In this document: piece after piece, positions 53,821 to 57,077 of the stretch | How the letters are laid out: the number at the start of each line of letters is the position of its first letter | Numbering within the stretch: the first letter of the stretch is position 1 | Assembly (NCBI RefSeq): GCF_000411295.1 | Contig: NZ_KE150421.1 | Location: 1,494,835-1,558,834, forward strand | DNA: 64,000 bases | Reading direction: 5' to 3' | Source: Paenisporosarcina sp. HGH0030 | GTDB taxonomy: Bacteria; Bacillota; Bacilli; Bacillales_A; Planococcaceae | Made by a program: the position numbers and the translations under genes | Notes under the pieces: generated by a model | Seen by the model: only the letters and a program-made list of their open reading frames with translations | The model's database searches: none | What the model was told of the DNA's origin: nothing

Positions 53821-56181
53821 ATGATTTCCCTTTTTAAACGGTCAACAGAAACTAGCGAACGCCAATTAAAGAAATATCGTAAATTAGTAGATCAAATTAA
53901 TAACCTGGAAGATACATATTCTCAAAAATCAGATGATGAATTAAGAGAAGCCACTCAAGTGTTCAAAAAACGAATTGAAAATGGCGAAAAAATTCAGGCC
54001 ATTATTCCAGATGCTTTTGCTGTTGTTCGTGAAGCTTCGAAACGCGTCCTAAATATGCGTCACTTCGATGTCCAGTTAATTGGAGGTCTAGTATTGACTG
54101 AAGGCAATATTGCCGAAATGCCAACCGGAGAAGGTAAAACACTCGTTGCATCCCTGCCTTCTTACGTGCGCGCACTTGAAGGGAAAGGCGTTCATGTCAT
54201 AACGGTAAATGAATATTTAGCGAATCGTGACTTTGAACAAATCGGACAGATCCATCGCTTTTTAGGATTGACAGTCGGCATCAATCTGCCATTGATGCAA
54301 CCGGCCATGAAACAAGAAGCCTACAATGCGGACATTACGTACGGTGTGGGAACAGAGTTTGGTTTTGATTATTTGCGTGATAATATGGCACCTGACCTTT
54401 CCCAAAAAGTCCAACGCCCTTACCATTTTGCCATTATAGATGAAGTGGATAGCGTATTGGTTGACGAAGCCAAAACACCGTTGATTGTGGCCGGCAAAAT
54501 GTCAGCTGATGCAGATTTACATATGATTGCAGCTCGTTTGGCTAAACGATTTATCATAGAGCGTGACTACGATTTCGATGATGAAACGAAAGCAACATCA
54601 TTAACTGAAACCGGAATCGAAAAAGTGGAAGCGGCTTTTGGCATTGATAATCTTTATGATTTGGAGCATCAGACTTTGTTCCATTATGTCATTCAGGCAG
54701 TTCGTGCTCATGTAATGTTTGAACGCGATGTTGATTATATCGTTAAAGAAGATAAAATCTTCTTAGTCGATATGTTTACTGGACGAATCATGGATGGCCG
54801 TACATTGTCTGATGGATTACATCAAGCAATTGAAGCTAAAGAAGGCGTTACGATTACGGAAGAAAATAAAGCCCAAGCCCAAATCACCATTCAAAACTAT
54901 TTCCGGATGTATCCCCTACTTTGCGGGATGACGGGTACGGCAAAAACGCAGGAAAAAGAATTCCTTGAAGTATATGGAATGCAAGTTCTGCAAATTCCGA
55001 CAAACCGCCCACGCATTCGTAAAGATGAAACGGATCAAGTCTATGAAACGATTGAGCAGAAATATACAGCTGTTGCCAAGGAAGTAAAAGCCCGTCACAC
55101 AACTGGACAACCTGTTTTAGTCGGAACTACTTCTATTTTGCAATCAGAAGAAGTAGCGAAATATTTAAAACAACTAGACTTGGAATTCCAACTGTTGAAT
55201 GCAAAAAGCGTGGAGCAGGAAGTATTCTTGATTTCACAAGCTGGTCAATTAAACCAAATTACCGTTGCCACTAACATGGCTGGTCGAGGAACTGATATCG
55301 AACTGGGTGATGGTGTTTCTGATGTAGGCGGACTATTTGTCCTCGGAACTGAAAAGCATGAAAATCGTCGAATTGATAATCAATTACGCGGTCGCTCTGG
55401 ACGCCAAGGCGATCCAGGTGAGTCTCAATTCTTTATTTCCCTCGAGGATGATATGTTCAAACGTTTTGCAAAAGATGATCTAGAGAAATTCAATAAAAAA
55501 GTGAAAACTGATAGCATAGGTCTTGTCCTTGGTAAAGATGTTCATGAACTGACGGAACGTACACAGCGTATTGTCGAAGGATCTCATTTCTCCATGCGTG
55601 AGTACAACCTTAAATTGGATGATGTCATCAATGAACAACGAAAAGTCATTTATACCTTAAGAGACAAAGTGCTTGAAAGAAATGATTTGATTGATCAATT
55701 ACACAAAATGTTGGATGAAACAGTCGAGTTTGTTGTAGGGGAAAGTTGCTCAGAAGACGAACTTTCTGCACACTGGAATTTCGACCAAATCGAACAAACG
55801 ATGAATCAAATTCTTCTAGCACCTGTTACATTGAATCGTTCTGTTTCTAAAGTGAAAGATATTATTAAACAACTTCAGCCGGCAGTAAATGAATTGAAAG
55901 ATTACATGTCCACTTTCTCTGAGCAGCCTGAGGTTATGAATACCATTCCACAAGTGATGCTTGCCTACTTGGATTCAACATGGGTACGACATTTAGAGGC
56001 GATGACACGATTGAAAGAGGGCATCGGTTTACGTGCATATCAACAAGAAGACCCAATGCGCATTTACCAAAATGAAGGTCTGGAGCTTTTTGAAATGCAT
56101 TACCAGGAGCTACGCCGTTCAATCGCAACTGAGATTATCAACTTTATGAAAATTATTTCAACTCGAGAGGAGACGATTTAA
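53821..56181 (+). CDS. secA2: Accessory Sec system translocase SecA2 (Bacillus S-layer type)
   Basis: A 786-residue SecA paralogue: Walker A MPTGEGKTLVASLP, Walker B IDEVDSVLVDEAKTPLI, preprotein domain, MAGRGTDIELGDG and QLRGRSGRQGDPG. It ends EIINFMKIISTREETI and lacks the zinc-binding SEC-C tail present in SecA1, and is about 50 residues shorter. AAAGGAGCG 8 nt before the ATG at 53821 decides the start. It is followed with 1-nt overlap by slaP, the arrangement described for B. anthracis, where SecA2-SlaP aid export of S-layer proteins. Substrates are likely surface proteins encoded nearby. Confidence 0.95.
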   Translation: MISLFKRSTETSERQLKKYRKLVDQINNLEDTYSQKSDDELREATQVFKKRIENGEKIQAIIPDAFAVVREASKRVLNMRHFDVQLIGGLVLTEGNIAEMPTGEGKTLVASLPSYVRALEGKGVHVITVNEYLANRDFEQIGQIHRFLGLTVGINLPLMQPAMKQEAYNADITYGVGTEFGFDYLRDNMAPDLSQKVQRPYHFAIIDEVDSVLVDEAKTPLIVAGKMSADADLHMIAARLAKRFIIERDYDFDDETKATSLTETGIEKVEAAFGIDNLYDLEHQTLFHYVIQAVRAHVMFERDVDYIVKEDKIFLVDMFTGRIMDGRTLSDGLHQAIEAKEGVTITEENKAQAQITIQNYFRMYPLLCGMTGTAKTQEKEFLEVYGMQVLQIPTNRPRIRKDETDQVYETIEQKYTAVAKEVKARHTTGQPVLVGTTSILQSEEVAKYLKQLDLEFQLLNAKSVEQEVFLISQAGQLNQITVATNMAGRGTDIELGDGVSDVGGLFVLGTEKHENRRIDNQLRGRSGRQGDPGESQFFISLEDDMFKRFAKDDLEKFNKKVKTDSIGLVLGKDVHELTERTQRIVEGSHFSMREYNLKLDDVINEQRKVIYTLRDKVLERNDLIDQLHKMLDETVEFVVGESCSEDELSAHWNFDQIEQTMNQILLAPVTLNRSVSKVKDIIKQLQPAVNELKDYMSTFSEQPEVMNTIPQVMLAYLDSTWVRHLEAMTRLKEGIGLRAYQQEDPMRIYQNEGLELFEMHYQELRRSIATEIINFMKIISTREETI

Positions 56182-57077
56182 TGGGCATTTTTTCGATTTT
56201 CAAGAAGACCGAAAAAACGGGTGCTGATAGTACCGTTGAGTCAACAGAGTTAGTTAATGGCACTGAACCGAGTGCTCAGTCGGAAGAAGTCACTACAGCA
56301 TTGTCCCTTCATCCTGCTTGGGATGTACCGAAAGAACAACAATATGTATTCAGCTTCCTTTCGAATGAGCTTGAATCATTAAAACCAAATCAAATTTCTT
56401 TATCAGGCATCGATATTGAGCAAGACGACAATACACAAGCTTGGTTGGTTAAAGCATTTTTACGGACATCATTGGCCACTCCCATTACATTGAATACAGC
56501 TGAGCTCGTGCTGATCGATCAAAATGAACAAGTGGTGGCAGCAAAAGAATTCAATCTTGCGGAACTAGGTGAATTGCCTGCAACCAGTGCACGACCTTGG
56601 GTATTTGTTTTTGAACAGCCGACTTTAAAAGGAGAACTTCCTAAGGATGGTTGGCGTTTAGCTTTCAACGTTCAATCGTTGGTACCACACAAGATCGAAT
56701 TGGACGCAGCTTGGGAAGAAGCTCTAAGCGACGAACAAAAAGATGGCTTAAAGAAAATTGTTGATTCCCTGCCTAAACTTCATGACAGAGAAGTAAACTT
56801 CAGTGGATTCCAGGCAAAAGTTCAGCCAGATGGTACTCTTGCGGTCTCCCTGTTTATTAGAAATGGGCACTCCCAGCAAATCACATTAGAGCAACTTCCA
56901 CTGGAAGTGCTCGATGCGAATGGCAAAATTGTGGCACAAGGCGCATTTACGATTGATCAACTTAAGGTTAATGCAAATACTTCTAAACCCTGGACCTTCT
57001 TGTTCCCTAAGGAAATGGTCATCAATAAAGATTCTGACATGTCTAAATGGACCGTCAGAGTGCCTCAGAGCGCTTAA
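56181..57077 (+). CDS. slaP: Accessory Sec system S-layer assembly protein SlaP
   Basis: A 298-residue protein without signal peptide or membrane helix, so cytoplasmic. It carries a tandem duplication of about 105 residues: repeat 1 (43-150; HPAWDVPKEQQYVFSF, ... ARPWVFVFEQPTL) and repeat 2 (173-280; DAAWEEALSDEQKDGL, ... SKPWTFLFPKEM). The N-terminal 40 residues are acidic and probably disordered. This duplicated domain is characteristic of SlaP, which works with SecA2. The start overlaps the secA2 stop (TAATG), giving coupled, stoichiometric production. Confidence 0.92.
   Translation: MGIFSIFKKTEKTGADSTVESTELVNGTEPSAQSEEVTTALSLHPAWDVPKEQQYVFSFLSNELESLKPNQISLSGIDIEQDDNTQAWLVKAFLRTSLATPITLNTAELVLIDQNEQVVAAKEFNLAELGELPATSARPWVFVFEQPTLKGELPKDGWRLAFNVQSLVPHKIELDAAWEEALSDEQKDGLKKIVDSLPKLHDREVNFSGFQAKVQPDGTLAVSLFIRNGHSQQITLEQLPLEVLDANGKIVAQGAFTIDQLKVNANTSKPWTFLFPKEMVINKDSDMSKWTVRVPQSA

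What the first reader, a model, noticed from the sequence alone, without database searches (positions are those of the whole stretch)
53821..57077. SecA2-SlaP accessory export pair next to wall-polymer and surface genes
The second SecA lacks the zinc tail of SecA1 and is fused in one operon with a duplicated-domain SlaP. Both sit between tagO and a run of exported genes: NAGPA-family, SLH-only, acyltransferase, NlpC/P60, nucleotidase. This composition suggests a surface-assembly module in which the wall polymer, its decoration, the SLH protein and an accessory export route are inherited together. No classical S-layer gene is in the window, so the true substrate might be the SLH-only protein or an unlinked S-layer.
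Basis: partly seen in the sequence, partly recalled or inferred. Interest (0 to 1): 0.72.

Follow-up and report, generated by a model that had tools for sequence, protein, structure and literature searches.

The report
S-layer export pair with signal tag
The window holds a known bacterial export pair, SecA2 and SlaP; comparison of relatives suggests that it serves mainly the S-layer coat protein, whose gene lies just past the window's edge, and recognises it by an unusually conserved signal peptide found, in the family examined, only where both partners occur.

Summary
The pair is real and of a described family. secA2 (53821-56181) and slaP (56181-57077, overlapping at TAATG) match NCBIfam TIGR04397 and TIGR04399 above cut-off. 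SlaP relatives place the window near Paenisporosarcina.

The TagO-LCP link is ancestral: LCP sits beside TagO in 29 of 35 family genomes that lack SecA2. The exported neighbours vary. A linked S-layer candidate exists 4.9 kb past the window's right edge: 827 aa, signal peptide, three SLH, no Cys, codon bias near EF-Tu's.

New observation: such S-layer-like proteins share a signal peptide (consensus KYxKFxATAATATLVASAIVPxASA) that is their most conserved part (above the non-SLH rest in 87 of 87 pairs). It occurs in 50 of 51 family genomes with both SecA2 and SlaP and 0 of 40 others, agrees on 13 of 13 independent tree contrasts, and in 26 of 26 versus 0 of 32 genomes of genera not used for the profile. 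Its best PDB match is the S-layer protein Sap (E 0.036). The window's exported proteins lack it.

Likely: SecA2-SlaP selects S-layer precursors by this signal peptide. Untested at the bench.

The parts
53821..56181 (+). secA2, accessory SecA ATPase without the zinc tail (786 aa)
   Evidence: TIGR04397 1295.8 bits, cut-off 1085; Pfam SecA_DEAD, PP_bind, SW
56181..57077 (+). slaP, accessory Sec S-layer assembly protein with two SLAP_DUP domains (298 aa), overlapping secA2 at TAATG
   Evidence: TIGR04399 382.8 bits, cut-off 250; TIGR04398 two stretches; DNA
52531..53610 (-). TagO-like sugar-phosphate transferase; ancestral neighbour that marks the site of the cassette
   Evidence: Glycos_transf_4; next to SecA2 in 48 of 51 SecA2+ family genomes, but also beside LCP in 29 of 35 SecA2-less ones
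51308..52369 (+). LCP glycopolymer transferase, part of the ancestral DegS-YigZ-LCP-TagO block
   Evidence: LytR_cpsA_psr; census
57147..59657 (-). secreted NAGPA (phosphodiester glycosidase) protein without an SLH match; neighbour, lacks the client signal peptide
   Evidence: PF09992; no hit with the signal-peptide profile
59902..60531 (-). SLH-only protein (209 aa) with a very hydrophobic signal region; not a likely SecA2 client
   Evidence: PF00395; no profile hit
62565..63992 (-). C-terminal part of a 786-aa SLH plus nucleotidase protein cut by the window edge
   Evidence: L061:1400-3760
30403..32916 (-). secA1, housekeeping SecA with SEC-C-type tail

Best explanation
secA2-slaP is the B. 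anthracis-type SecA2-only accessory export system, set as a two-gene cassette beside TagO. SecA2 works at the single SecYEG channel. Together with SlaP, probably a cytoplasmic targeting factor, it exports a few surface proteins: above all the S-layer protein encoded 11.9 kb downstream of slaP, plus two SLH 5'-nucleotidases. Clients are chosen by a dedicated signal peptide (consensus KYxKFxATAATATLVASAIVPxASA); the other exported island proteins, including those in the window, carry ordinary signal peptides and use SecA1. Shown here: family membership, anatomy, one SecY, codon bias, conservation of the signal peptide, and its co-occurrence with the pair. Inferred: physical recognition, SlaP's role, routing of each protein.
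For: Family scores. One SecY in the genome. S-layer candidate L061:7769-10252:- has CAI 0.740, EF-Tu 0.746, window median 0.462. All 11 ORFs with CAI above 0.73 in 19 loci of 17 genomes, picked without regard to signal peptide, match the signal-peptide profile (8 of the 11 are among its seeds, 3 are not). In these 11, median identity is 0.68 in the signal peptide (shuffled 0.26), 0.31 in the SLH part (shuffled 0.19) and 0.30 in the rest (shuffled 0.26); the signal peptide exceeds the rest in 54 of 54 pairs (87 of 87 in the wider set of 14). In 24 control pairs of other exported proteins it exceeds the mature part in 5. Signature in 50 of 51 pair+ family genomes and 0 of 40 others. 13 of 13 independent contrasts; held-out genera 26 of 26 against 0 of 32; among SLH-rich genomes 50 of 51 against 0 of 8 and 6 of 6 contrasts (which leaves out G002 and, except in the held-out count, includes G124). 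G064 has SecA2, no slaP and no signature; G036 has slaP, no SecA2 and no signature. The profile's best PDB match is Sap; slaP and secA2 are said in print to support S-layer protein secretion in B. anthracis (PMC9277125 passage). In 14 of 14 pair+ genomes of 1-2 contigs the nearest signature gene is within about 125 kb of slaP.
Against: No experiment in this family. The profile was built from pair+ genomes only. Low hydrophobicity alone is not specific: SecA2-less G026, G043 and G058 have similar low values without the motif. G057 (87% complete) has the pair and no signature. Outside the family G105 and G141 have SecA2 with a weak SlaP-like gene and no signature, while G120, whose SlaP is below cut-off, has it. 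In 6 of the 17 genomes the fetched stretch held no such ORF, and the two signature proteins of G065 have only CAI 0.51-0.54 (measured with the window genome's codon table). Association does not prove recognition. The PDB hit is weak (E 0.036).
Confidence: 0.68

Rival explanations
1. Co-inheritance: the signature is only the ancestral signal peptide of one S-layer protein lineage. That lineage needs SecA2-SlaP because of its flux or mature part, and the signal peptide is not read by SecA2 or SlaP.
For: All profile seeds are from pair+ genomes. SLH-rich genomes without the pair also carry another CsaB subtype, so a whole S-layer system may have been exchanged.
Against: The SLH part and the remainder have diverged far more than the signal peptide. 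It also heads 5'-nucleotidases with different mature parts. 9 of 24 codons differ synonymously with no amino-acid change between G000 and G001.
Confidence: 0.22
2. One reading: the exported neighbours in the window (NAGPA, SLH-only, NlpC, nucleotidase) are the clients of the pair.
For: Adjacency in this genome and close relatives; an NlpC-like gene within 8 kb of TagO in 29 of 51 SecA2+ genomes.
Against: None carries the signature; SLH-only has the most hydrophobic signal region of 24 SLH frames; in 10 of their 11 ortholog pairs tested the signal peptide is less conserved than the mature part; the set varies between genomes.
Confidence: 0.08
3. The signal peptide class directs where on the cell the protein leaves (as YSIRK peptides do), and SecA2-SlaP is only one part of that placement.
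For: [quoted passage not shown]
Against: No localisation data here; the strict co-occurrence with the pair points to the pair itself. In C. difficile SecA2 was spread over the cell (PMC7445750 passages).
Confidence: 0.1
4. The 5' end is conserved for mRNA, translation or recombination reasons, not at protein level.
For: The genes have codon bias of very highly expressed genes and S-layer bodies seem to be exchanged: G000 and G005 share position and signal peptide but not the rest.
Against: Many synonymous differences inside conserved residues.
Confidence: 0.05

Closest known systems
Bacillus anthracis S-layer cluster (secA2, slaP, slaQ, csaA, csaB, sap, eag; PMC9277125 passage)
   Same: SecA2 and SlaP families, csaB and a three-SLH S-layer-like protein in one region; the signal-peptide profile's best PDB hit is Sap
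   Different: Here the pair sits beside TagO; the S-layer candidate is 11.9 kb and csaB 20.6 kb from slaP; slaQ and csaA were not looked for
Clostridioides difficile SecA2 and SlpA
   Same: SecA2-dependent export of the S-layer protein, SecA2 lacks the C-terminal tail (PMC7503281, PMC7445750, passages)
   Different: CWB2 anchoring instead of SLH (PMC8056022 passage); SlaP presence not looked up
YSIRK/G-S signal peptides
   Same: A conserved motif in the signal peptides of a set of surface proteins (PMC12445088 passages)
   Different: Different motif; no such model matched
SecA2-SecY2 glycoprotein export (GspB type)
   Same: Accessory SecA with dedicated clients (PMC3297441 passage)
   Different: Only one SecY in this genome

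Membership tests
SecA2_Bac_anthr (TIGR04397) | Score over curated cut-off | tested here: met
   1295.8 against 1085 bits
SecA2_Bac_anthr (TIGR04397) | No SEC-C zinc tail, unlike SecA1 | tested here: met
   SEC-C-type hits in SecA1 only
SecA2_Bac_anthr (TIGR04397) | SecA2-only system: no second SecY | tested here: met
   1 SecY match in the window's genome, 99.8% complete
SecA2_Bac_anthr (TIGR04397) | S-layer precursor export depends on it | not testable with these tools
   needs deletions
SlaP (TIGR04399) | Score over cut-off with two SLAP_DUP domains | tested here: met
   382.8 against 250 bits; two stretches of TIGR04398
SlaP (TIGR04399) | Adjacent to secA2 | tested here: met
   TAATG overlap; paired in 49 of 51 SecA2+ family genomes, the exceptions being G064 and G069
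Classical SLH S-layer protein (for the linked gene L061:7769-10252) | Signal peptide, three SLH, large Cys-free body | tested here: met
   SLH by Pfam, three stretches; Cys 0; signal peptide read from the sequence, no predictor run
Classical SLH S-layer protein (for the linked gene L061:7769-10252) | Very high expression | tested here: inconclusive
   Codon bias near EF-Tu; the 1176-aa L. sphaericus 2362 protein, taken from recall as SlpC, gives 0.793; no expression data
Classical SLH S-layer protein (for the linked gene L061:7769-10252) | Forms a lattice | not testable with these tools
   -
SecA2-SecY2 glycoprotein export | Second SecY | tested here: not met
Known specialised signal peptides (YSIRK, KxYKxGKxW) | Match to a curated model | tested here: not met
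   No such match in NCBIfam or Pfam; the name KxYKxGKxW is recalled

The most novel reading that the evidence does not exclude
SecA2-SlaP reads a signal-peptide code: the KYxKF-Ala/Thr-rich signal peptide is necessary and sufficient for the route, and SlaP is needed to read it (the one family genome found with SecA2 but no slaP, G064, also lacks the code). The S-layer body can then be exchanged freely while its export ticket stays fixed.
Probability: 0.42. Interest if true: 0.8.

Novelty: new variant of a known kind. Interest (0 to 1): 0.64.

Why it matters
How SecA2 selects S-layer precursors was called not yet clear in a 2012 review (PMC3297441 passage). A defined signal peptide that appears and disappears with the SecA2-SlaP pair turns this into a simple swap experiment. 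It names the likely clients in the pair-bearing genomes of the family (1-4 matches per matching genome) and gives a sequence marker for high-level surface display in soil bacteria.

Tried and rejected
TagO linkage as evidence for a module: rejected, because the backbone is present without SecA2. The window's exported neighbours as clients: rejected by signal peptide. Low signal-peptide hydrophobicity as the marker: rejected, because SecA2-less G026, G043 and G058 show it too (30 loci read, 10 gave no usable frame). Gene conversion as cause of signal-peptide identity: disfavoured by synonymous changes. A plasmid search for S-layer relatives gave 5 records, all matching only the SLH part. Solved structures for SlaP: one weak hit (E 0.33), treated as chance. 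Structure prediction of SlaP could not be run. Signal peptides of S-layer-like homologues in SLH-poor, SecA2-less genomes could not be read: the stretch held for G050 stops before the N-terminus and new loci were not given.

Papers: seen as passages only were PMC9277125, PMC8056022, PMC3297441, PMC7503281, PMC4902306, PMC8559796, PMC10624894, PMC7445750, PMC12445088, PMC5842191; PMC6333443 was seen in a search listing only. The primary B. anthracis SecA2/SlaP paper was not held, so its results are used only as cited in PMC9277125. That I did not find the signature in print rests on searches (listings with starts of abstracts; ten papers opened for passages) and on no NCBIfam match; most subscription papers are not in that library. 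One passage bears on the idea: a C. difficile review holds that signal peptides of SecA2-dependent Cwps must differ from typical ones (PMC5842191), without naming a motif in what I saw.
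Full report
OBSERVATION. They overlap by one base (TAATG) and match the B. anthracis-type accessory Sec families above their cut-offs. SecA1 at 30403-32916 has a SEC-C-type tail, SecA2 has not. The genome has one SecY, so this is a SecA2-only system. Named SlaP relatives place the window near Paenisporosarcina quisquiliarum (93% identical SlaP; its contig length identifies it as G005).

BEYOND THE WINDOW. The window is G000:C1:1494835-1558834. The genome has 72 SLH matches, many in the stretch just past the window. 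The island runs on with an SLH-nucleotidase (the gene cut by the window edge), an SLH protein, an M14 peptidase, an 827-aa SLH protein, an O-antigen-ligase-like protein, glycosyltransferases, an NTP transferase (GalU-like), a UDP-glucose dehydrogenase-like protein, WecG/TagA, CsaB (229.7 bits, cut-off 213.1), a MurJ-like protein, and SLH proteins with glucosaminidase, NlpC/P60, subtilase, amidase, nucleotidase and CAP domains. csaB begins 20.6 kb past slaP.

THE S-LAYER GENE. Codon adaptation was measured against 20 ribosomal genes (2865 codons). The 827-aa protein (L061:7769-10252:-) scores 0.740. EF-Tu scores 0.746 and the median of 41 window ORFs (at least 150 aa) is 0.462. Among the own-genome ORFs of at least 150 aa in the fetched stretches, only four ribosomal proteins and EF-Tu score higher; the rest of the genome was not measured. 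It has a signal peptide (read by eye), three N-terminal SLH domains, no cysteine and a body with only weak family matches (CopC). It lies 4.9 kb past the window end and 11.9 kb past slaP. In G005 the gene between the same neighbours has nearly the same signal peptide (97%), a similar SLH part (83%) and a body of low identity (30%; shuffled sequences give about 26%).

NEIGHBOURHOOD ACROSS THE FAMILY. 151 genomes were searched; 91 are of the window's family (G000-G090). SecA2 (over 1180 bits with TIGR04397; SecA1 matches of the family shown reach about 1031) is in 51, plus G002 where a contig end cuts it. 35 lack it, and 4 (G011, G029, G046, G071) have a divergent second SecA. In the 51, SecA2 is beside TagO in 48, and the pair is intact in 49; G064 has no SlaP match, and in G069 SlaP lies next to csaB. 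LCP is beside TagO in 47 of 51 SecA2+ genomes and 29 of 35 SecA2-less ones: the wall-polymer link is ancestral and the pair is a cassette at a fixed site. Within the fetched stretches, NAGPA-like genes occur in 15 of 51, csaB in 22 of 51 and an NlpC-like gene within 8 kb in 29 of 51. The window's full set of exported genes was seen only here and in G005. The stretches are 8-20 kb and the queries are this genome's proteins, so absences beyond that are not counted.

SURFACE TYPE. On a tree of TagO, YigZ, DegS and LCP (quick method, 92 rows, ten rows half filled or less), SecA2 presence differs across 12 independent contrasts; SLH richness goes the same way in 7-8, opposite in 0, no difference in 4-5 (the four divergent genomes, G141 and G002 are not in this count). 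csaB matches over 140 bits occur in 51 of the 52 (G018 has none) and in 8 of the 35.

THE SIGNAL PEPTIDE. The high-codon-bias proteins of different genera share an odd signal peptide. In 19 loci from 17 genomes all 11 ORFs (at least 120 aa) with CAI above 0.73 carry it; they come from 10 genomes, 8 of the 11 were later profile seeds, and 6 of the 17 genomes had no such ORF in the stretch. In these 11 proteins the median identity is 0.68 in the signal peptide (shuffled 0.26), 0.31 in the first 175 mature residues (shuffled 0.19) and 0.30 in the rest (shuffled 0.26); the signal peptide exceeds the rest in 54 of 54 pairs and the SLH part in 53. With three further proteins chosen for the peptide (14 proteins, 11 genomes) it exceeds the rest in 87 of 87 pairs and the SLH part in 86. 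In 24 control ortholog pairs of 11 other exported proteins the signal peptide exceeds the mature part in 5, two of which are the SLH-nucleotidase that bears the signature itself. Between G000 and G001 the 24 core residues are identical while 9 of 24 codons differ.

DISTRIBUTION. A profile of 13 such peptides from 8 pair+ genomes of 6 genera (A3) was run over the same 151 genomes (E up to 0.01 per genome). It matches 50 family genomes and 2 others. Family genomes with both SecA2 and SlaP over cut-off: 50 of 51 (missing G057, 87% complete; G002 counted). All other family genomes: 0 of 40, including all 7 SLH-rich genomes without SecA2 (one of them G036, SlaP only), G064 (SecA2 only) and the four divergent ones. 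The weakest best match of a genome is E 2e-5 (G089). Outside the family (60 genomes): G124 (pair) and G120 (SecA2 1173.7 bits, SlaP 209 bits, below cut-off) match; G105 and G141 (SecA2 with weak SlaP) and G111, G130, G145 (SlaP over cut-off, no SecA2 beside the one SecA) do not. On the tree 13 of 13 independent contrasts agree (p 0.00024). In family genera that gave no seed, 26 of 26 pair+ and 0 of 32 pair- genomes match. Restricted to SLH-rich genomes: 50 of 51 against 0 of 8, and 6 of 6 contrasts (p 0.031) (tree and SLH-rich counts leave out G002 and include G124). Among 5623 ORFs (at least 90 aa, overlapping loci counted twice) of 270 loci the profile gives 21 hits, none in the window; all 21 match an SLH model made from this genome's proteins. 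In 14 of 14 pair+ genomes of one or two contigs the nearest signature gene is within about 125 kb of slaP.

OUTSIDE CHECK. Against 177,635 distinct PDB sequences the best match of the profile is residues 1-30 of 'S-layer protein sap' (9g93_A, E 0.036). slaP, slaQ and secA2 are said in print to support S-layer protein secretion in B. anthracis, whose S-layer proteins are Sap and EA1 (PMC9277125 passage). That the PDB chain is the B. anthracis protein is recalled from its name; the output gives no organism. The match is weak alone, but it ranks first in a search that knew nothing of SecA2.

CLIENTS IN THIS GENOME. Three matches: the S-layer candidate, a 1438-aa SLH protein with two 5'-nucleotidase units, and a 726-aa SLH 5'-nucleotidase. 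A fourth, the 307-aa L115:4994-5917, is borderline (E 0.007, not). The window's SLH-only, NAGPA and NlpC proteins and the SLH-nucleotidase at its edge do not match.

MECHANISM. Most likely SecA2, with SlaP, recognises these precursors in the cytoplasm by the basic-aromatic KYxKF stretch and the Ala/Thr-rich core and drives them through the common SecYEG. SlaP shows no signal peptide by eye; it begins MGIFSIFKK, which could touch the membrane (inference). The signature goes with both partners, which fits SlaP as a co-reader or holdase; M. tuberculosis SatS is called a chaperone of the SecA2 pathway (title of PMC6333443, listing). Physical recognition is inferred, not shown.

CsaB SUBTYPES. CsaB falls into three groups (52 sequences, quick tree with long branches flagged). 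All 7 SLH-rich genomes without SecA2 carry the group of the two outgroup sequences used; pair+ genomes carry the other two, except five in the tree (by score seven: G037, G038, G053, G075, G076, G084, G085; G076 is L. sphaericus 2362). S-layer systems may be exchanged as wholes, which keeps the co-inheritance rival alive.

VERDICT. The pair is a known kind. The signal-peptide class tied to SecA2-SlaP is the part that I did not find in print in the searches listed.

Noticed in passing
G000:C1:1563768-1566251 (L061:7769-10252) and L263:3179-5719: Closest relatives G000 and G005 keep the S-layer gene's place, signal peptide (97%) and SLH part (83%) but the rest is only 30% identical, while the other island proteins compared are 75-98% identical: the S-layer body seems exchangeable.
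   Followed up: partly
L095:3987-7066, L096:9343-12400, L097:5215-8217: In family f22 (G111, G130, G145) three SlaP-like genes lie in tandem, with SLH matches in the same stretch and a single SecA in the genome.
   Followed up: no
many genomes, e.g. G083:C122:76043-76387: Small open frames of about 100-170 aa with a single SLAP-like domain occur in many family genomes, also in ones without SecA2; function unknown.
   Followed up: no
csaB genes: Three CsaB groups; the 7 SLH-rich genomes without SecA2 all carry one group, even where a sister species with SecA2 has another.
   Followed up: partly
G036, G064, G069 (L078, L076, L099, L100): Natural breaks of the pair: SlaP without SecA2, SecA2 without SlaP, and SlaP about 270 kb from SecA2 beside csaB.
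   Followed up: partly
L089, L152, L153, L154 (G011, G029, G046, G071): A divergent second SecA lies 6-7 kb from TagO with a NAGPA-like gene between; the genomes also have a SlaP-like gene below cut-off and few SLH matches, and sit on a long branch in the tree.
   Followed up: no
window 57147-60531; L069, L079, L083: Here the NAGPA protein has no SLH match and a separate SLH-only gene stands beside it; in other genera NAGPA and SLH matches abut next to csaB as if fused (frames not checked).
   Followed up: no
L107:6292-10608 and L062:10807-12987: The two other predicted SecA2-SlaP clients of this genome are SLH 5'-nucleotidases.
   Followed up: partly
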